DNA of 64,000 nt from the NCBI RefSeq assembly GCF_032854445.1, contig NC_088302.1, positions 11,405,338 to 11,469,337 on the forward strand. The letters run 5' to 3'. Below are positions 36,536 through 63,100 of this stretch, piece by piece (positions within the stretch are counted from its first letter, which is position 1; every line of letters starts with the position of its first letter). Position numbers and translations under genes: made by a program. This DNA is from Liolophura sinensis (taxonomy: Eukaryota; Mollusca; Polyplacophora; Chitonida; Chitonidae). The notes under the pieces are model-generated. The model did no database searches. It saw nothing but the letters and a program-made list of their open reading frames with translations, and was not told the origin of the DNA.

Positions 36536-37037
36536 CTAGCAGAGAGTTGTCTGTGGAAATGGGCCATGTCCATTGGCCAAACCGTTCCTATGTGCATAGC
36601 TACCAGTACTACTTTTACTGCTTCCTTTACTGTCACCATTCGAGCTTATTGCACTTGTAGGATTGGATGAAACGCTGACGCGTCGCGCTGGATCAGCACA
36701 GGCTCCTGCCTCGGCCTCTTCAGCACGCCGACCGTCCTCGCTGTGCGGTGAAATGTCATTAGCAGGGCGGTGGACCCGCATTTCATACTGCAAGGGCTCA
36801 AGCTCCCCCAGTGAGTTTGTAAGTGGTATATGAGCTGTGTCTATATCACCGTCCAGTAATTGGTCTTCACACTCCTCCGTGTACATTTCACGATTGTCTG
36901 GGTTATTTTCATTACTAAAGAAATAGGACACATTTTTAAAAGATGGATTCAAATCAGGAATAAGTCTTTCTATAATATCCAAAAATGTTGGTCTCTGTTT
37001 GGGTTTGAATTGCCAGCATAGCAACATGAGGTCATAC
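36536..37037 (-). CDS. Receptor terminal exon: kinase end and cytoplasmic tail
   Basis: [30 protein letters not shown], then an acidic and Ser-rich tail. SYAHRNG sits where human receptors have PYTHMNG/PYAHMNG, so the PI3K-binding YxxM is lost. Ends QTTLC (human IGF1R ends QSSTC). Confidence 0.95.
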
Positions 37038-40000
37038 CTGAAAACAGAGAAAAACAAAAATTAACATAAGAAAAAACCCTAAAATTTGCTGATTTTACAG
37101 TTATTTCATCTATTGCTGTGTCCGATTTGGACCTTTCTTTTAAGGGTCAAAAATATATGTAGCTCATTTTATCATCCACCAATAAGATCTTGAAGACTTA
37201 CTCAACAATTCATTATCAATTTTAACACTAATCACTACATGTATACTAATAAAGATGGTTTTAAGTCCATTTTTTATTTAGGTCTTAATACTAGCAAGCC
37301 ATTTTATTACCACAGCACTGATCAGAGATCATTTACAAAAATAATCTCCTGTGAAATTATTCATCACCTTTGTGTCATATGTTTCCTGCAGATTATTTCA
37401 TTACTCGATTGGGCACATGGCAATGCCTCAGCAAACATGAGTTTGAAATATCCAGAAAATAAGAACCAGGAGTTGAATCTATAATCAGTTATAAAACTGA
37501 TTAAGTATTGGAGTTTTTATACATTATCCAACCTCCCCACCGCCTCTCCTTTTTGAGACAGACTCTCTATAAAGCTATGTATATGTACATGATATATTAA
37601 GCTAAGTTTATACGTACAGTTGGTCTGGACACCCCTCTGGCTTTTCCATGATTTTACCATCCAAAACATAGCGAAGCACTTGTTCATTTGCCAGCCCTTG
37701 GTACGGCTGGGCAGCTAGTGTGGCCATTTCCCATAAAACCACACCGTACGACCTGCAAAAGCACAGGTAAATGTCATCACATTGTTCTTCTGTTCCATCA
37801 CCCCATTTACTACTCACAGTATTTTTTTCCTCTCTTTCTCTCATGGGAGCTGTCCACAACAAAACTATAAAAATATTTGTCCTTTAACATGCATGACCCA
37901 TATTTACGCTCATTTTGCCAAATCTACTGAATGCAGGAAGATGTTTTGAGATTAGTTTGGAAAATAAGGTGATATTGTTAGTTTCTATGATATTTATCTG
38001 TCTCTAAAACCAGACTTTTGGGGTGAAATTTGAGATAAATTACCATATTTACAGAGAGATCAGACATGTCTGATCACCAGACAATGGACTCACCAGACGT
38101 CAGACTCGTAAGAATATTTGCCATCTTTTAATGACTCTGGAGGCATCCATCTCACAGGAAGTAGACCCTTGCCCTGTTTTCTGTAATAATCTGTCTCATA
38201 GATGTCTCTTGTCATTCCAAAATCTGTTCAAATCAGAATCATTGAATAAAATTATCCCTGTTATTCCTTTTACAAAAAATGTTGCCAGGGTGCCTTTCAA
38301 ATTTAGAAATTCTGGTACAATGCTCACCAAAGTTGCCAATCAGTCTTATCAATGAATGAACTAATGAGACCCTCACAGAAGCCCTGTACAACAATTAATA
38401 AACATGCATAAACAGTATACACAACTGTATTTTAAAGCCACGTATTCTGTCAATAATATATTGTGGCACATATCAGCTGAAATCGTATATGTTACAATTT
38501 ACTAGTTGAAAGAACTGGCTGAACACCACGGTTGAAAAGCAGGAAGTCGAGGTGTTGTTTTTGTATTCTCTGCTGTTCTGATATACATCGGCAATACTAC
38601 ATCACCATGACCAATGAACAGCCTCAAAGCTGACTTAACTGAATGTACAAATGTCTCTACACTAATCTTTCTGCAAAAATGTTTTACTGAGCATCATGCA
38701 CTATAATTCATGAGGCGAAAATTTACCACAATCACTCTTTATGGGATCATTAGTAACAGTCATCTGAAATATGTTCTTGTGGGAAAAAAAAAAAAAAAAT
38801 GGGAACTATCAAATCGGATCATTCAACAATTTTTCAAAAATCTTCTCCCAATGGGGAACACTGTCCAGTATGTCACTACGTAGACCGTGTTTCAATAAAA
38901 GAGCACATAAAGCAAAGAGGTAGCTTATATTTTATTTATTAATTTGATCACTGTTCATGCCGTACTCAAGAATATTTCTCTTATACCATGGTTGTCAGCA
39001 TTATGGTGGGAGGAAACCAAGCAGAACCTGATGGAAACCCACAACCATCTGCAGGCTGCTGACAGACCTTCCTACATATGGCCGGAGAGGAAGTCAGCAT
39101 GAGCTGGACTTGTACTCACAGCGACCTCATAGGTGGATGGCAGTTCATAACCATTGCATTGTAACAGCAGAGAATGATGTGTTTTTTTCACAGGATGGAA
39201 CCAGCTTGTGAAGGAAATGTCGAGTGATCACGCCTGTTTACAAACCTCCAATTTTCACTGTGTTGTCAGCAGCAACCATGCAGTTCCTGGCGGCCAAATC
39301 CCGATGTACAAACTTTTTGAAGCCCAGGTAAGCCATTCCATCGGCTATTTCACCTGCCATCTGCAATATCTCTTTCACTTGCAGTTGTCTCCCACAATTA
39401 TCCTGTTGAAGAAAAATATTGGTTAATGAGATCCTGTAAGTAGCTTTGCAGTTGGAGATAAAATTGTTAGAGTTACAACAAAAAAAGTGTAAGCAGCCAG
39501 TTCCGGGGTTGATGTACAAAGAAGTGTGACCCATATATACCTCTTACCATGAAGACAACAACTTCACCAAACACATTAACAAATACGCACATTTATTATA
39601 TTATCTTGAGTAAAATGTGTTGAGTGCTGAAAATGTGTCGAAATGACAAAATGTCTGAACTGCTACAAAGAGGCTGAAATGACAAAATGTCTGAACTGCC
39701 ACAAAAATGTTGAAATGACAAAATGTCTGAATTGCGCTAAAGATGTTAAAATGACAAAATGTCTTGAATGTCACAAACACGTTGAAATGACAAAATGTCT
39801 GGAGTGACATAATGATGTAGAAATGACAAAATGTCTGTACTGCTCCAAAGATGATGAAATGGCAAAATGTCTGGAGTGACAAAACAATGTTGAAATGACA
39901 AAATGTCTTGAATGTGAAAAAGATGATGAAATGGCAAAATGTCTGGAGTGCCACTAAGATGTAGAAATGACAAAATGTCTGAGCTACAACAAAGCCATCT

Positions 40001-43000
40001 TACTTCGTCATCTGGCCGATGTTTACGTAGGAAGTTCTTTAGGTCGCCATTTGCCATCAGCTCCATGATCACAAAGGTGGGCTGAGTTTTGGAGACAACA
40101 CCTATCAATCGCACCACATGGTGACACACAAATTTCCTGCAACACACAAAACAATCCCACATGGATGTGCTGACACATTAGCAGTAACAGATTTTGATAC
40201 AGCACCATAAAAAAATAAATGTATTAAATATCTTCATTTTCATTGCTTCTTAACACCATACTCAACGATTTATCAATCATATAATAGCAGTGAGTCACAG
40301 GGCCTGTTTTACAAAATGTTCCATGGCCTCCTATGTATAATATTATTTAATAAGTCGCAGGCCAAATCTGAGAGGACCTGCTACCGTTTTCATGTGAACT
40401 GCTGTTTTATTTTATTACATGTGTTTTCCCTAAACCCTCATTTGAAGATGCTCTGGGAATTACCACACAGTTTATGGTCACCACCACAACATTACGTAAA
40501 TCCATAAATCACACTTAAAACCTGAAAAAAGTTGTTTTATTGGCAAAATGGATGAGGATGTAGGTCATGGGTTGCTTTTAATTACGTGTATTACGATATT
40601 ATGGTCAAACAGACAAACAGACTACATGCAAATGTATGAGTTTTTTTTTTTTAATAAAAAATAAATAAAAATAAATTTCAAAAAAGAAATGCTTTGTGAG
40701 TCAGAGTTTTTTTTTTAAGATGGCTATTGTCCTTGGGTCTGAAGGCTTGGGCAGTGGGTGTCTGTATTGTTGCAAACTGTCCACATTTTTTGAAAATATC
40801 AGACGTATTAGTACCCGTATTCTGAGGTGTTCTCACCCGCCGAGTCCTTCACCCGTTCACTTTGGCATTGCCCACCCCCCATGTAGTGAAATTCCGAAAC
40901 TCCGAACACCTGTGCCACACATTTTGAGCACAGAGCACTCTGAACTTTCCAGACAATATCCTTTGAATCCTTTGTGTATATATTGTACTCTCTCGATTTG
41001 ACAGCAGGAGAAGCTTCTCAACAATCCCTGTTGTTGCTGTTGTACAATGATTTGTGACTAGTACCTTGCTACATGTCAATCAGTGGATAATGTGATACAG
41101 TAAAGGCAACAAGGTGTTAGTCAATAACACTGAAGATCGTTTTATGATTATTTGGTTCTTGTTTTTTAAAATCTTTCATGATTACTTTTTATTTTCAAAG
41201 CTGTCCTGTTGAAAATTGACATTTTACACAAAATGAAATTTGGCCTGCAATTCCTTTCTTTTAATTTTTTTTTTAGCAGGTCATATTAGGATTTTATCTG
41301 TTAGCAGGTTGTTAAAATGAGCCCTGAGTTTTCTGTGTAAACCACCGACCTTCAGCAAGTTACTTGATTAACTTTTCCAGGTGTGCAGGGAGTATGGGTG
41401 ACAGAGAAGTGGACTTAAACAAATGTTAGATTGCGAGACATCCATGTGAGCGATGTCAACCATCTTTGTGTCACCAAGACCCCACAAGCAGTGGGGTGAA
41501 TGAAAAAATTCCCTGTCCAAGGCACGGTTTGCATTATTAGCGGTCAACCTTTAGAAAGCATAATAAAACCTGCTTAAGACCTACTTCATATTTGTGGCTT
41601 CTTGAAGGAAATCACAGCGGTCACTCATTGTTGCATTTTCATTTAAAGTCTGGAATTCAAAAAAGAATTATTATTTCTTCACTATGGGTAAAATATAATT
41701 TAGAATAAACATAATGGATGATAATTCACAATTTGCCTGAGGGTTTGACAAAAGATTTAAAGTTTTACACTGTACTGAAGAATATTTCACTAATACGGTG
41801 GAGGTCTGCATTAAATCAGGAGGAATTCGGGCAGAGCCCAAGGGAAACCCAGGACTGTCCACAGGTTGCTGGCAGACCTTCTCACATATGTTCAGAGACA
41901 AAAGATTATTAGGAAGCACATGTAAGAATAAAAGAACTCTCCCTAATATTCTCGGAATTCATTTCTGTCTGCTTGCACTTTTTTCAGTAAGACAAGTATC
42001 TGTTTGATATAAAAGAAGGGTGTTGGCAAAAGAAGAGACAGAAATCTGTACATGACAAGACACAAGAGACAAGTAACAGTCTGAGACAAGAGACAAGTAC
42101 TGGCACCAGAAAAAGAGACAAGAAACAGTCTAAGACAAGCGGTCACTACGAAACAATAGATAATTATCAGCATGAGACAAGAATCAGCAAGAGAGGAGTA
42201 TCGGTATGAAACAAGAGACAGATATTAATAGGAGACCAGAGACAGTCACCAATGAGAGACAAAAGATATTCTTGATTATGTAGTGGAGAAACGATGAGCA
42301 ACAGGAGATTCTTGAATCAACTGATGCGAGTTGTTTCCCCTACTTATTGATTTTTGTTTTTCAAAAATCGTGCGATGTCATTTCAAACAAATAAAACTTT
42401 AAATCACAATTTGCGTGAATGAATGCTCTTTCGTGCCGGCTGAGCCACATTATTTGCATAGTGTAATATAATAAGTAGCATAGTTGATCTTTCGTGATAA
42501 TGTTACATGAAGTTTTAGTGCAACAGCGTTAGAGCTTTTAGCCACTGGGCCTCTAGTCGGTTGTACTCTATATAGATTACTACTGGGTGTGTAACATTAT
42601 GGGCAGTGACTATATGATTAGTTATGGGGGGAAAGTAAATATGAATTGATTGATTTTTTTTTCTTTTTTTTTTTTCTGATTGGTGTTTTACGCCGTACTC
42701 AAGAATATTTCACTTATATGACGGCGGCCAGCATTATGGTGGGTGGAAACCGGGCAGAGTCCGGGGGAATACCATGACCATCCGCAGGTTGCTGGCAGAC
42801 CTGAATTGATTGAAAGCTTACATATAATCTTCGGAAATCAGATAGTAGATTATACTACTATTTATCTCTATCACATTGACACAACTGGTCCTCGAGATGT
42901 CCATGTTCATAAACAGAGTACCACAAATTAGACCCACCAGTTCACCTTGCTGTTCATATTTTTGTTTAAGAGAATTGATGACGCTACTCATCAATGTATA

Positions 43001-46000
43001 TCAGTGTATTTGAAATGAAGGCGAAGAACGAAACTGTTAGAAAACGAATTTCACATTGATCAGAAACCAACGGACTCTTCAAATATAACATCCTTACGAT
43101 CGGTAACACAAAGGATTGACGTCACAACCAATGTTTAAATTCATCTGAAAAGGGAAGGTTGGTCTTCCCGGATAGCTCAGTGGGATATTGGAATGTTTTA
43201 GATCCTTGTGTTCACGAGTTCGAATCCATCTCTACCGTATACCTGTCAAAGGCACACTCAGGTGGCACAAGTGGTCATCCATCACCACTCAAACCACAAA
43301 CTCGCAAGCGTGGATTCTTGAAAAACAATCAACTGCGCAGACAATAGCGTGACGTCACAACAAACGTTTGAGCAACTAGAGATTAATGTGAGACAAATGA
43401 CTAGTACTGGTATGAGACTACAGACACTGTTACAGACAATATTAAAACCATAACCATGCACAAGATGTGTTTACCTTGACGGCGACCATCCTTGGTCCAT
43501 TCGGGCTTCCGTCTGCATACTCTCCCTCGTATACCATTCCAAATGAACCCTGACCTAGCTCCTTGATGAGACTAATCTTATCACGATCAACTTCCCACTC
43601 GTCGGGTGTGTATGCTGAAATGACAATATTTGGACATCACAAAATGTCTGTCTGAACTTGGTCACTTCCACAAACTTGATGACAGCTATACATGTTGTAA
43701 GTGTTGTAGCACATCAGAGGAATATTATCTAATCTGGACATGTTATTTTATAAGAATTCTTAAAATCATAAGCATTTCTACCTGCACAATACATTTCGTC
43801 ATCGAAATCTTGAAAATTATATATTTAAACTGCATCTAAAGCTACATTTCAGAAGTTAATTCTGTAGAGGGCTAAGGGTAATTGAGTTTCAGAATATCAC
43901 CATTGGCAATGCAAATGTAGCTACCAATATGTATATGACAGAAAAGGCTTAGTTCTCCATCTACTGTTCTCGCCAGTGGTTTATTTCACATTGATTCACA
44001 AACCACATCAAACCGACACTTGCTGGCCTAGCTCATTATTAAACTGTGAGAATGAGAGCTGATGAAGTATTGTCTTCTAAAACCATTTTTACCTCCAAAT
44101 ATAAACTGGCTAATAAACTAACTTTCATACATGCTAGGAAATGCCACAAACTAAATAAAAAGTACAACGGACATAACTTTTCATATAATCCTTAAACATC
44201 AGGTTACACATGTATATACACACACAGAAATGGTAAATATTTAACCTTGAGGAGAGCAATTTATGACACTTACATGTAGACGTGTGGAATTTGCAATTAA
44301 ACAGACAGCTCTATCGTTCCACCAAGTATTTGACTGGCTCCCATTAACAGAGTGCTTATCGTTTTTCTTTCCCCTCTCTTTTACAGTGAAACTGTGCCAG
44401 GTATATGCATTTGACTTAAATGGTCTACAATAAAGGAGTGTGTGGATGTGATGGTGTGTGTGTGTGTGTGGAGAAGGGGGATGGAAGAGACCTGTCTTGT
44501 GATTTGCAATAAAGTTCACCAAGTTTTCTGTACTTTGCATTCACTGGCCGTGTCTGTTTTAGTTGAGGAAGGGCTTCTCCCAGAAAACATACAGCCCTTG
44601 AGTGATGCTTTCTCTCCTTAGGGTTCCCATCCTTTTCTTAATTTGATAATCAAACCCTTTTCCAAGCTTTCAAAACTATAAGTCTTTCTTTATCAGCCCA
44701 GCATTCCCTGACCAATGACCAGTGTTCATTACAGTACATTATTTCTTCATTTCTTAAGCCATAATCAATCAATCAATCGAACATCACATGGCATCATTGG
44801 ATTTCCCAACTTGCTTAAGATGTTACACAAACACCTAGCTTGTTCCAAGCAAGAAATTCAAGACCTTTTTTAGGGCCTTAATTGACTTTCACTTCACTAA
44901 AGTTTTTCTTTCTTCCATACCCATGAGGTTTTGTTATAGCCCAAACTTTTCATTGTCTGCCATGTAAAAAAAATTCACGTTAAACTCTTTAAGAGAAGTC
45001 TGTTTTCTCAGAACTTGCTGCTCATGCTTCAGTCCTATCATTTAATATCCCGACAGATCAGAGGGGTTGTGTGTCGGCACGGTGGATCATCATTAACACG
45101 AGGCTTGCAAAGTGAAAACGATACTCACTTATGCCCCATGACCAAGATAGGCATAGTGCCCTCTGGACGTTGTCTAAGGGAGGATAACTCAGTGGTATAA
45201 TTCAATGGGTTCTATCACCCAGTAATGGGCTGCAACACAGAGTTATCTTCCCTTAGATTGTGCTAGGCCAACTTGGTTAAGGGCCATAACCAATTCCCCC
45301 ATAAATCTGAAAGGGGACTTACACAGATACAACACCCATCTGGATGTGTACATTGATTTTTTACATTTTAAAGGAAATGTTTGGCAGATGTATATAAAAA
45401 AATCACAACACACTACTAATCTACATGACAGCAGTTTTTCCCCAAACATCTTCACTTTAGCCTCGTCATGGAAACAACGAAATTGCACGACAAATGTACG
45501 AGTTTACTGGACTCCTCTTATGCTTACAACAATGCTTACCGATGCCAATATAGTCCGGGTTTTCTGACACAATGTAGGGAGGATGTAGCCTAAAACCACC
45601 ATGATTGGGAGGAGAAAAAGACATAGTAATTAGATTATCATGCCTTAATATCCCTCTTCTGAGGGTGATTTACGGACTAACCGACTTACCACTGTAAAAG
45701 TAGTCCGGGTTTACAGATGTATACATCGTATCATGCCCATTGACAAACCTAAGGCACAAAACAAAGCAAAAATAAAAATCACAGCGCAAGAACGATGTTT
45801 CTACCACCAGAAAGAAAGAGAAAAAGACAAGCTAGTACATGTTAGATATTGTTCACTCCATTGACACAAAGGAAAACAACAAAATGTACCCTTATTTTTC
45901 TTTGAAAATAACACAATTATTGTACAAATTGGCAACATGACAGGATAGGTTACCCTGCCCAATGAATTTATGAATTCAGGTAAATGCATGTATTCAACAG

Positions 46001-49000
46001 AAATTTAAAATTTCGCCCCGTACGTGCATTTTAGGTCCTCAATTATTACCTGCTGCTGAAGCTTTGTATTTTTTCAGAAGGGCATCACAACAAACCTCAA
46101 AACACCATTATACCAACTTTCAGAAATAGGAAAAATGAGGAACTTATAAAGGCACAAAACTTTCATTTACAGTCGTTTTCCTCCTGTCAATTAGGAAATG
46201 TTTAGACTGTGACTATTTCTAAACAACACAGGCTGTTAAAATAAGCAGGTCAAAATAATATTACAGTCCAATCCTGGAATGTTAGTGAAACTTCATAAAC
46301 ACCTTTGTTACACTGTCTACTGCGCTGGTCGCAATAGAAACTATCAATGCTGAAATAAAACATGTTATATCGAAAAACGGTGGGAAACAAGCCCTACTGG
46401 CCATAGCTATTGTTTTTCTGATCAGCTCGTTAACTTTATAAAATCAGATTTTTAAGGCCATAAGGTACATGTAAGCCAAAATACTGAAACGGGAATCTTG
46501 ACCTCCCATCACTTGTTCCCTTTGCTTTCTCAGCCTGTATAACAACCGGCAACACAGGAATAATGTGGCGTCCTAGCATGAAAAAGTGCTTCGTTGGGTT
46601 TATTTAACCACAACATTAACAATCATAATTGTTATGACCAAAATTCTCTTCTGGAGATGATAGTTACAATATTCTCCACCAATGAAACAAACGGATTTCT
46701 AAGTCATTAAATCATAATTGAAATCTTGAAATTACAGTGTTTGTGAAATGTGTATCGGAATTGTAGAGTCATTAGAAAATGTTAATCTGAACCATACTGT
46801 CTTTGGGTAATGGCAATTTCGACCATACACTCTTTGGGGAATGGCAATTTCGACCATACAGTCTTTGGGGAATGGCAATTCCAACATTCAGTCTTTGGGG
46901 AATGGCAATTCCAACCATACAAGCTTTGGGAATGGCAATTCCAAAAAAAACAATCTTTAGGGAATGGCAATTTCAACCATACAGTCTCTGGGTAATGGCA
47001 ATTTCAACCATACAAGTTTGGGGAATGGCAATTCCAACCATACAGTCTTTGGGGAATGGCAATTTCAACCATACAAGCTTTGGGAGATGGCAATTCCAAC
47101 CATACAGTCTTTGGGGAATGGCAATTTCAACCATACAGTCTTCCAGGTATGGAAATCTGAAACACACAGCCTTTGCTTGCTTGACAATTTTAGACACTCC
47201 TGTTTTTTAGCCACCAGCTCAAACAGCATAGGCATAAGTCACTATCTCAGGAATACTGTACCAGCCACAATAAGACACTTTCACTTCAATAAACTTAAAG
47301 TTGCTCAAATATATTTGCCTAAAAACTGTTTACTGAAGTAAAAATAGATAACGGGTGAAATTATCTTCTCGTCAAAAGCTTTTAGTAGAATAAAGCTTAC
47401 ACATTATTTTCTCATGCAAACTCATTGTATCAATTATCTGAAAATTTCAAATTTAGTCCTAATGACAGGCAAAGACATGTGTCATGCACAATGGATGTTT
47501 ATAAACATAAATGAGCAAATTTGTGGCATTTAAGAGGTAAAACACAGAGAATCTACATTAGAGGGAACCTGGTTATTCAGAAAAGCACAGCAAGGCACAC
47601 ACAAAACAAAATAGTACAACCAAATGAAATATACAAGGGAATTCACATAATTTATATCCCTCACTTATAACATGTATCCGAAACCTATGCATGGAAAAAT
47701 ATGATTTTATAACTGGATCTAAATAAATATGAACACCAAACTTTATCCAAAGTGGACAATATTTGAAGCAGTTATTTCATGGAAATCAACTGTCAATCAG
47801 AATCAAGGACATAATTAAATATGCAAAAGTAATGCATAGATTGGGACGAATTTCAAATCTGATCTGATGTTGTACAAAAAGAATCTGCACACAAAATGTC
47901 ATGGAAATTTGGAGCAGATACTGGATGGAAAATTTATATCCCCTTGTCTGCCTTTGATGAGTCAAGGGTTGACCCAATTTATACCCAGAATTCAACTGTA
48001 TTCTCCATTTCTTCTCAGCTATTATTATATATAACTATTATTATATAAATTACATTTTCATCATGACAAATTAAATCCATCAGATAAGCATCTTTTTCTT
48101 TTCATAACATTTTCAAAATAATTTTTTGAATTAATTTTGTTTTTAATATATAATCCACAAGGGAAGGCTGAGTAAGTCTAAGACCAAAGTTCTGACAGTT
48201 TCAAACAAATAACTTGTAAAATTGAGGAGAAACAACTGACCTGCTCTTTGCGCAGAACCACATGACGATGAATATGATGATTACAACGATGACAACCACT
48301 GATATGACGATCATGATGATTGGTGCCTCAGTGGGAGGTTCTGGAACAAAGTCACAACAAATTTGGAGTTAATTATATTGGCCAGGCCAATCAGGAATAA
48401 AACATTATTATATAAAATTGCACAAGGTACGACATATTTAGTAATGACTGAATTATTTATGATCTTATGTAAAACGTAAAATTAACCATTCCCTTGCAAC
48501 AATGTAAGGTTTTCACCGGTCTCTTGTGTGTACAGGTACATAAGAACTAGATACAAAAGTTGAGAGAATTTAAAACTCACTGTTTAAAAACAGTCATGTT
48601 CTCAACTAGTGCATATATTTAAATCAAACCCCATCTGAAAAATAATATTTAACTGTACACCTACTGCGCAAATAGGCTCACTCTTCCCTCTCATTCTATC
48701 TCACACAATAACTCACCTTTATAGTTCGCATATAATACCAAATAATACCTGGGCCCATTTAACTTCTGTAGCTAAAAGAGCTAAGTGTCATTTAGCTGAC
48801 TACCATAAGTAGGCTATGAAAAAAACTGACCAGGTTGTTTTACAAGAGGAAAACTACCTTAAGCTTCGCAGGCTTATCATACAATAAATTATTTTCAAAA
48901 TGTAACTATATTAAATTACTATATACAAATAACAGAAAAAGGTGATAATTTCTCCTCCAGTTTCGTTTTTGATACAGTCTGATAACAAGGGCAATAGCTC

Positions 49001-52000: not shown

Positions 52001-55000
52001 AGTGCTGAAGAACGTGGTCACATCACGCTTGTGACGGGAAGGGCAATTCTTATCCAGGCTGGCAAAATAGAAATAGTCACATATAGTTAAATATTATACA
52101 ACATGTAATTAAAGACGAACATGTACTGATGTTTTTTATTGCTGAAATTATACACATAATACTGACACATCAACCCACATTTTGATTCCTGCAAAAATTC
52201 CTGTACATGTAAATATGCTGTCATTATGGAGTAATACGTTTTTCTTGAAGCCACAGAAAAATGAAAATCTTAAAGCATTTAATCATTGATATACTATGCC
52301 CTTATCCAGAATACTCTGTTTATTGATTTATTTGATTGGTGTTTTACGCCGTGCTCAAGAATATTTCACTTATATGACAGAGGCCAGTATTATGGTGGGT
52401 GGAAACCGAGCAAAGCCCAGGGGAAACCCACCATCATCTGAAAGTTACCGGCAGACCCTCCCTCGTATGGCCGTAGAGGAAGCCAGTATGAGCTGGACTT
52501 GAGCTCACAGCGACCACATTGGTGAGAGGCTTCTGGGTAACTACGCTGCGCTAGCGTGCCAACTGACTGAGCCACAGAGGCCCCTCAGAGTACTCTAAAC
52601 CCTCAACCTTTTCGCAGCTACAGGAGGCGTTTATTCTGTCATGCTATGGCAATATTATTCTCTCTAGATTAACTTGTAACAGTTTTGTTCAAACCTCTCA
52701 AATTTGTCAACCCAGACACGGTAGCATCATCTGCATATTCATCTTCATTTAGTTGACAGATTGCATTTAATCTTGCTATTTCTTGTGTGAAAAGGTTGAT
52801 GATTTAGTGTAGAGATGATAATTAATGACAAGAGTTGTTGTATAATTTTATATCATTAATTCACTAATTTGCAACTGCACATTGTTAATATAGATTTACC
52901 CGGGTGGTGTTTCCGCATCTTGGAGATAACCTATTCTGAGGAAAATAACACTGGAGGAATACGAAAAATAACACTGGAGGAAGAGGGAAAATAACACTGG
53001 GGGAATAAGGAAAATAGCACTGGAGAGATAGCGAAAATAACACTGGAGGAATAGGGAAAATAAGATTTCAACCATGCACAGAGCGAACTACTGCCTCCAG
53101 CTGTGACTTACTCCAGTTCTTCCATCCTTTTCTTGAACACTGTGTCGTGGATGGAGTTCTCAAACTGGATCTGCAGTTGCCGATCTTGCTCTTCTTTTTC
53201 CTGCAGCTTCTTGGATTTGGGACAGGCACAGCACGGCTGACCGTCGACAGATGAGATGTTCTTCTGCTTCACCTTTTCCGCTTCTTCTTCCTTTTCCACG
53301 TGGTCCTCCGGAGGTACCCATGCTGTCAGGAGAAATTACGTACATATGATACAAGAGGTTTGTTTGTGAAGCATGAATAAATTAAACGCCACAATAGCAG
53401 TATTTCAGCTATATCATCTCAATATCATGTTGGAACCTGGAAATAGCTGTATCTCAGCTATATCATCTCAATATCATGTTAGAACCTGGAAACAGCTGTA
53501 TCTCAGCTATATCATCTCAATATCATGTTGGAACCTGGAAATAGCTGTATCTCAGCTATATCATCTCAATATCATGTTGGAACCTGGAAATAGCTGTATC
53601 TCAGCTATATCATCTCAATATCATGTTGGAACCTGGAAACAGCTGTATCTCAGCACTGGGAATGGTAACTTGCAAAATCCGAACAAATACTACACAAACA
53701 CTTTCAAAAACACTAAATAAACAAAATTCAGTTAGAATTTGATAATCACCTTAAACACAGCTATACATACATACACTTATCCAAATATTCTTTAAATACT
53801 TAACTACAATGTCGCCAGCGAAAATGCCAAATAATACTGTCACCTGTGAGGCAGAATATGCCTGGGACATAACCTCCACTGAGGACAAAATTAAGTTCTA
53901 AATGATGTGAACCTAATCTGTTCTCCACACGAAACACAAACACAGTAAAGAGCCTATTCTTGTCAACCCAGGGAACCAATACAGTTGTGAAGCAAGATGA
54001 GCTGTTTGTCAAGGAAAGCATGGGTTCAAATCCTGAGAGACATGGCTCAACTAATGCAGTATACCTGGAGGTTTGGTGGATCGGTTTGTAAACAGTGAAG
54101 TTTTCTGCAGTCACGCATCATTTAACCATAAATCACACTACACTGGTGTAAGTGAACTATCAGCTCTGTTTATTCAACATATGTCCCTATTTTAAGCATG
54201 AAGTACAGAAATATCCTAAAATACATGAATGTTCAAAATTTGTCAAATAACCCATCAGCACATGCCCAGTGATCTTGAAAAAAGTTCTTGTACATGCACA
54301 AGTGGTACAAGTTTAATGTAAACTGCTACATCTACCTACATCCCAAGTACTATACAAGGGTACAGCATCACATTTGTTGCTCATTTCTGTTTCACATCTT
54401 GTTTCATCAGACATTTATTTTTCAAATGTTTTACAAAATTATTCCACTTACGTTCTTTGCAAAAATCTTTTCGGTCCAATCCCATCATGCTGGGCGTATC
54501 ACGCGGTTTCCAGTAGATCTTGTAATGCGTGACATTACCGTTGGGGTTCTTTGGGGGATCCCACTTGACTGTGAGGGCGGTATGGGAGTCTGCCTGTGCT
54601 CTCAGATTGTCAGGCTCTTCAGGCGCTGAAAACACAAACAACACAATTGTCTGGTCAATGAATGTGAGTGAGTGAGTGCTTGAGGTTTAACGTCGTACTT
54701 AATAATTTTTCAGTCATATGACGACGAAGGAATCTTTAGAGTGCCGTCCCGCTCGAGCCATTATACTGATAGGGGGCAACCACTCATTGCACTATCCCCT
54801 TCATGCTGAACACCAAGCGAGGAAGTTAAAACTTCCTCTTTTCAGTTCTTAGGTGCGACTCGACCCCAGGCTTGACCCTGGATCTACCGCTCTCAATGAT
54901 GGTGAAGAGCATGAAGAGGACGCTGTTCAGAAATACTTGTAGTCTAAAATTCTAACCCTCTACCTCAGCATAATTAAGGCGAATAAATTCCACTCGAGAG

Positions 55001-62714: not shown

Positions 62715-63100
62715 AGTACATATATGGCAAGAACACATAAAATAGATATACAGATATGGCAAGGAAACATAAAAAACGTACAAATATGGCAAGGAAACAT
62801 AAAATACATATACAGATATGGCAAGGAAACATAAAATACATATACAGATATGGCAAGGAAACATAAAAAAAGGACAAATATGGCAAGAACAAATAAACTA
62901 CACATACAAATATGGCAAGGATACATAAAACACATGTGCAAATATGGCAAGAACAAATAAACTACACATACAAATATGGCAAGGATACATAAAACACATG
63001 TACAAATATGGCAAGAACACATAAAATACATATACAAATATGGCAAGGATACATAAACACATATACAAATATGGCACGGACACCTAAAATACATGTACAG
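62715..63100. repeat. Minisatellite, ~32-bp unit, ~12 copies
   Basis: ATATGGCAAGGAAACATAAA + ATACATATACAG with higher-order variants. A 204-codon minus-strand ORF across it is only repeat peptide. Confidence 0.92.

What the first reader, a model, noticed from the sequence alone, without database searches (positions are those of the whole stretch)
45540..45748. Two mutually exclusive juxtamembrane exons, each with an NPDY docking motif, in an insulin/IGF1-type receptor
Seen: exon A (45690-45748, 59 nt) and exon B (45540-45589, 50 nt) have good splice sites, are separated by a 100-bp intron, and share the AACCCGGACTA core. Both complete the Arg codon left by the TM exon (AG|G) and both leave G to be completed as Ala by the first kinase exon. 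Both lengths are 3n+2, so using both or neither shifts the frame; A joined to B reaches a stop in the kinase exon. Known: this NPEY/NPXY site binds IRS and Shc PTB domains. Inference: an exon duplication lets the animal make two receptors with different adaptor-docking surfaces. I know of no described insulin receptor with such a switch, but could not search.
Basis: partly seen in the sequence, partly recalled or inferred. Interest (0 to 1): 0.88.

Follow-up and report, generated by a model that had tools for sequence, protein, structure and literature searches.

The report
Insulin-receptor docking-site exon swap, chiton
A chiton's insulin-receptor gene carries two interchangeable mini-exons, each encoding the site where signalling adaptors dock, so splicing could make two differently wired insulin receptors from one gene.

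Summary
Exons A (45748-45690, 59 nt) and B (45589-45540, 50 nt) lie between the transmembrane and first kinase exons of an insulin-receptor gene. Either alone keeps the frame; both or neither reach a stop inside the first kinase exon. The window is, or nearly is, the chiton Liolophura sinensis, and NCBI's "insulin-like peptide receptor isoform X2" of that species uses exon B with exactly the predicted junctions. I did not see isoform X1, which I expect to carry A. Both exons score as insulin-receptor juxtamembrane segments, A better than B, which favours exon duplication, though their direct similarity rests mainly on NPDY. Phe occurs there in 0 of 127 unique non-vertebrate-type sequences collected. 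So splicing may do here what vertebrates do with two genes; this step is inferred. RNA reads and other chitons could not be examined. Eight literature searches aimed at the question listed no insulin receptor with such a switch (lists partly cut); splicing of a juxtamembrane adaptor site is known in FGFR1-3.

The parts
45690..45748 (-). Alternative juxtamembrane exon A, 59 nt; adds [19 protein letters not shown] between Arg and Ala
   Evidence: isoform-A segment scores 76.5 bits against 48.3 without any juxtamembrane exon
45540..45589 (-). Alternative juxtamembrane exon B, 50 nt; adds [16 protein letters not shown] between Arg and Ala
   Evidence: used exactly by NCBI isoform X2; isoform-B segment scores 65.6 bits
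45590..45689 (-). 100-nt intron between A and B; the one yTnAy branch-point-like site found is about 60 nt from the 5' splice site
   Evidence: 99 of the 100 nt scanned
48241..48340 (-). Transmembrane exon, ends AG|
43475..43614 (-). First kinase exon K1 (AYTPDEWEV...[11 protein letters not shown]...VAVK)
36536..41649 (-). Remaining kinase and tail exons K2-K7, ending at a stop codon
49582..60355 (-). Ectodomain exons in the window (cysteine-rich, L2, fibronectin III, RHKR cleavage site). Residues 1-226 of the protein were not found in the window and presumably lie beyond its upper end
45528..45539 (-). 12-nt extension of exon B if a second, tandem donor is used (in frame, +4 residues); not used in isoform X2
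   Evidence: predicted only

Best explanation
In the insulin-receptor gene of this chiton the short juxtamembrane exon that carries the NPxY adaptor site was duplicated in tandem. Each mature mRNA takes one copy: A (...[12 protein letters not shown]...) or B (...[13 protein letters not shown]...). Taking both or neither breaks the frame inside the first kinase exon, so such mRNAs should be degraded or give a kinase-less membrane receptor. Shown: anatomy, frame logic, match of both exons to insulin-receptor juxtamembrane segments, and an NCBI model using B. Inferred: duplication as the origin, a regulated either/or choice, and a difference in docking. Most likely difference: A, with Phe at Y+1 as in IGF1R and TrkA, is the better Shc docker; B, with an aliphatic residue there as in IR, favours IRS-type adaptors. 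The direction of this bias is the least certain step (about 0.3-0.35).
For: Isoform X2 of Liolophura sinensis uses B exactly; its residues 227-1428 map to exons in the window. A, B and a longer B are the top three of 138 cassettes; 0 of 300 shuffles gave an NPxY cassette as good as B. Profile of 127 unique non-vertebrate-type juxtamembrane sequences, without P0001: isoform A 76.5, isoform B 65.6, neither exon 48.3 bits. Stop positions when both or neither are used. Y+1 rule from Cai et al. 2017, PMC5378997 (abstract and passages). Phe at Y+1 in 6 of 247 proteins with a readable motif, all six named vertebrates, and in 0 of 127 non-vertebrate-type ones. Five-tissue RNA-seq exists for this genome project (PMC11068029, passages).
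Against: No RNA reads seen; isoform X1 not seen, only that the 90% cluster has two members. Direct similarity of A and B is weak outside NPDY (tblastn E = 44). No second chiton receptor was recognised in three protein searches, so conservation is untested. The Y+1 rule was measured on mammalian receptors, and residues before NPxY matter for IRS-1 too: A keeps a hydrophobic-Tyr pair at -8/-7 (Met-Tyr) as IR does (Leu-Tyr), while B has Tyr-Ile, so A may bind both adaptors. B has Ile rather than Leu. No RNA pairing was found that would enforce exclusion: 78, 10 and 23 of 100 simple shuffles reached the observed energy for the three flank pairs.
Confidence: 0.75

Rival explanations
1. The swap mainly alters something other than adaptor choice: juxtamembrane spacing or autoinhibition, receptor internalisation through NPxY, or an extra tyrosine (A has Tyr at Y+2, B does not). 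This can hold together with the main explanation.
For: A and B differ by three residues in length and in tyrosine content. NPxY is also needed for rapid internalisation of IR and IGF1R (PMC5378997, passages).
Against: The core that both keep is the PTB-docking motif, and the changed Y+1 residue is the one reported to set adaptor preference in mammals.
Confidence: 0.25
2. One of the exons is used only rarely, as splicing noise or a decaying duplicate, without a separate role.
For: Only one annotated isoform sequence was seen; the two exons diverge strongly outside NPDY, and no close relative could be checked.
Against: Both are open, have good sites relative to the gene's own exons, keep the motif and score as juxtamembrane segments; B is in an NCBI model.
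Confidence: 0.13
3. The pair mainly serves unproductive splicing: double inclusion or skipping lowers receptor level by mRNA decay or gives a membrane-bound kinase-less decoy.
For: Both outcomes stop in K1, after the transmembrane segment.
Against: A single out-of-frame cassette would do this without a second docking motif; no transcript evidence was available.
Confidence: 0.07
4. Assembly artefact: two alleles or two loci collapsed side by side.
For: Tandem similar pieces can arise this way.
Against: A and B differ at most sites outside a 12-nt word, both have splice sites, and a protein record carries B in this context. That record may derive from the same assembly, so it is not fully independent.
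Confidence: 0.02

Closest known systems
FGFR1-3 VT+/VT- juxtamembrane splicing (FRS2 docking)
   Same: Splicing alters a juxtamembrane adaptor-binding site of a receptor tyrosine kinase (review PMC6540211, passages; Burgar et al. 2002 seen there only as a reference).
   Different: Six-nucleotide inclusion or exclusion that gives or removes binding, not two alternative exons each with a complete NPxY.
Vertebrate IR versus IGF1R (NPEY-Leu versus NPEY-Phe)
   Same: Same receptor class, same motif position, aliphatic versus Phe at Y+1; this residue was reported to set IRS-1 versus Shc preference (PMC5378997, abstract and passages).
   Different: Two genes in vertebrates; here one gene with two exons, and Ile in place of Leu.
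Vertebrate INSR isoforms IR-A/IR-B
   Same: Alternative splicing of an insulin receptor (PMC5671728, search listing with start of abstract).
   Different: Exon 11 cassette in the ligand-binding part, not intracellular and not mutually exclusive (recalled, from no call).
C. elegans DAF-2c exon 11.5 and DAF-2B
   Same: Cell-type-specific or truncating splicing of an insulin receptor (PMC4876481, passages; PMC7041946, search listing with start of abstract).
   Different: Cassette exon or truncation; the word juxtamembrane has 0 occurrences in PMC4876481.
Tandem duplicated exon substitution (mutually exclusive exons in general)
   Same: Homologous neighbouring exons used one at a time (PMC9741552, search listing with start of abstract).
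   Different: A text search of that paper for insulin receptor, INSR, FGFR and receptor tyrosine kinase gave 0 occurrences.

Membership tests
Insulin/IGF1-type receptor tyrosine kinase | L domains, furin-like region, fn3 and tyrosine kinase | tested here: met
   Pfam scan of P0001: Recep_L_domain (2 stretches), Furin-like, fn3, PK_Tyr_Ser-Thr
Insulin/IGF1-type receptor tyrosine kinase | Closest solved proteins are insulin/IGF1 receptors over nearly full length | tested here: met
   Best chain 8u4b_A, Insulin receptor, query residues 39-1320, 1084.8 bits
Insulin/IGF1-type receptor tyrosine kinase | [10 protein letters not shown] activation loop and a basic alpha/beta cleavage site (recalled as defining) | tested here: met
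   [10 protein letters not shown] at 38206; RHKRD in exon 52058-51818
Insulin/IGF1-type receptor tyrosine kinase | Juxtamembrane NPxY | tested here: met
   NPDY in both exon A and exon B
Mutually exclusive exon pair | Each alone in frame; both or neither out of frame | tested here: met
Mutually exclusive exon pair | Homology between the two exons | tested here: inconclusive
   Above shuffles (0 of 5000 DNA, 1 of 5000 peptide) and both match one profile, but mostly through NPDY; tblastn of B against A has E = 44
Mutually exclusive exon pair | Transcript or annotation evidence for each exon | tested here: inconclusive
   B: NCBI isoform X2. A: only inferred from a two-member cluster and from the name X2
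Mutually exclusive exon pair | No transcripts with both exons | not testable with these tools
   No RNA reads available
IGF1R-like (A) versus IR-like (B) adaptor preference | Phe versus aliphatic residue at Y+1 of NPxY | tested here: met
   A NPDY-F, B NPDY-I; rule from PMC5378997
IGF1R-like (A) versus IR-like (B) adaptor preference | Different Shc/IRS binding | not testable with these tools
   Needs binding assays

The most novel reading that the evidence does not exclude
One invertebrate insulin-receptor gene switches, by a mutually exclusive exon, between an IGF1R-like Shc-coupled form (Phe at Y+1) and an IR-like IRS-coupled form (Ile at Y+1). It would thus reach by splicing the growth-versus-metabolism split that vertebrates reached by gene duplication.
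Probability: 0.3. Interest if true: 0.85.

Novelty: new variant of a known kind. Interest (0 to 1): 0.64.

Why it matters
Insulin-like signals drive both growth and metabolism. In mammals a single residue after NPEY was reported to tilt IR against IGF1R signalling (PMC5378997). If a chiton chooses that residue by splicing, the split can be studied within one gene and in a natural setting. It would also show that the short, separate juxtamembrane exon of this receptor class can be duplicated and swapped in evolution. The splicing claim is cheap to test, because tissue RNA-seq for this genome project already exists (PMC11068029, passages).

Tried and rejected
RNA pairing as the cause of exclusion: none above simple shuffles (78, 10 and 23 of 100). 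Steric exclusion by a too-short intron: the one yTnAy site found lies about 60 nt from the donor, so it cannot be claimed; a minimal distance would rest on recall. RBFOX TGCATG: none in 46050-45300; a TCTT cluster at 45827-45815 upstream of A could be a PTB-protein site but is unproven. Further duplicated exons in the gene: I saw no convincing second copies in the tblastn rows; the strong low-identity rows there are exons extended past their edges. Acipenser protein P0002 scored high apparently because its model holds one kinase stretch twice.

Other chitons: three protein searches gave only P0001 as a recognisable chiton receptor. Searches list the best 120 of 1018 and of 5808 matches, all 43; entries are 90% cluster representatives and the lgn ones bear no species name, so isoforms in other molluscs or unnamed chiton pieces may be hidden. 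A text scan of the 265 proteins for ENPDY/HPPY found P0001 alone.

Dropped rows: of 265 proteins, 18 had no readable motif and were left out of the Y+1 count. In one search, 243 segments were split by a pattern of mine into 105 vertebrate-type and 138 others (127 unique). That pattern names some Phe-bearing vertebrate motifs, but all six Phe carriers are named vertebrates.

Literature: ten searches in all. Eight were aimed at this question: 6 of 6 papers listed; 20 of 38; 14 of 14; 15 of 29; 15 of 500; 6 of 7; 8 of 250; 10 of 26. Judged by titles, abstract starts and passages, none listed describes a juxtamembrane exon switch in an insulin receptor. Searches were for the chiton genome and FGFR1. 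The library holds open-licence papers only.

Full report
What is there. The minus strand carries most of an insulin-receptor gene from about 60355 down to a stop at 36536. A protein search returned P0001, NCBI [quoted passage not shown], 1428 aa, identical over the juxtamembrane and first kinase exon. Its residues 227-1428 map to exons in the window, mostly at 97-100% identity per aligned piece (pieces that run past an exon edge score lower); residues 1-226 were not found there. So the window is this chiton or something nearly identical. A genome of this species was published as L. japonica (PMC11068029, passages) and corrected to L. sinensis (PMC12441733, whole text).

The pair. Exon A is 45748-45690 and exon B 45589-45540, 100 nt apart, between the transmembrane exon (48340-48241) and K1 (43614-43475). 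A adds [19 protein letters not shown] and B adds [16 protein letters not shown] between the same Arg and Ala. Using either is open; using both stops 57 nt into K1, using neither stops 25 nt into K1.

More than chance. With matrices from 17 donors and 17 acceptors of the gene's other exons, A's donor ranks 1st and B's 7th of 304 GTs in the intron; B's acceptor ranks 6th and A's 20th of 256 AGs; jointly a 12-nt-longer B, A and B are the best three of 138 frame-compatible cassettes. None of 300 shuffles gave an NPxY cassette scoring as high as B, though 33 had some cassette that good and 18 some NPxY cassette. A profile from 127 unique non-vertebrate-type juxtamembrane sequences, without P0001, scores isoform A 76.5, isoform B 65.6 and no exon 48.3 bits. 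So B adds 17 bits and A 28: both look like juxtamembrane segments, and A is closer to the common form. Duplication of one exon is the simple explanation. Against it, the direct likeness of A and B is mostly NPDY, and tblastn of B against A has E = 44.

Use. Isoform X2 carries B with the exact junctions. An isoform X2 implies an X1, and the 90% cluster has two members; that X1 carries A is my inference.

How it may work. Cai et al. 2017 (PMC5378997; abstract and passages) report that in IR, changing Leu973, the residue right after NPEY, to the Phe found in IGF1R raises Shc binding, lowers IRS-1 binding and shifts signalling toward IGF1R; the Shc PTB domain has a pocket for that Phe. Exon A has Phe there and exon B Ile. 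Among 265 collected proteins, 247 had a readable motif, and 6 had Phe at Y+1, all named vertebrates. Among 127 unique non-vertebrate-type sequences the residues were V 63, M 35, I 11, L 6, A 5, Y 3, E 3, W 1 and no Phe. So exon A's Phe is unusual for an invertebrate in this sample. Against a simple reading, the same passages say that Leu964 and Tyr965 upstream matter for IRS-1; A keeps Met-Tyr there and B has Tyr-Ile. A may therefore bind both adaptors and B mainly IRS-type ones. This step is inference.

Exclusion. The frame rule is the only enforcement I can show. RNA pairing between the flanks was not above shuffles, and the inner intron is not clearly too short.

Novelty. Splicing of a juxtamembrane adaptor site is known for FGFR1-3 (PMC6540211, passages), and insulin receptors have other splice isoforms (DAF-2c, PMC4876481, passages; IR-A/IR-B and DAF-2B from search listings). 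Eight searches aimed at the question (lists partly cut) showed no insulin receptor with alternative NPxY exons. I call it a new variant of a known kind.

Noticed in passing
45539-45528 (minus): A second donor 12 nt after exon B (GTAAGCATTGTTGTAAGC) would add four residues in frame; it scores better than the donor used in isoform X2 (8.0 against 6.7).
   Followed up: partly
46790-47142: Minisatellite of about 11.5 copies of a 31-bp unit in the intron before exon A.
   Followed up: no
53393-53654, 39636-39994, 62717-63099: Further tandem arrays (49, 36 and 32 bp units) within or upstream of the same gene's mapped part.
   Followed up: no
14107-14040 (minus): Rfam SNORD82 match just above its gathering score (43.3 against 43).
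   Followed up: no
24029-23757 (minus): An open frame that looks by eye like part of a protein disulfide isomerase (recalled likeness, no search).
   Followed up: no
Proteins: The NPxY motif varies among molluscs: NPGY in six named gastropods, NMNY in Lymnaea and Bulinus, NPDY-E in oysters. Some receptors may have lost or changed classical PTB docking.
   Followed up: partly
PMC9654127 versus P0148: The cuttlefish paper's text gives NPDY while its figure legend says NPEY; the Sepiella protein in the database reads NPEY.
   Followed up: no
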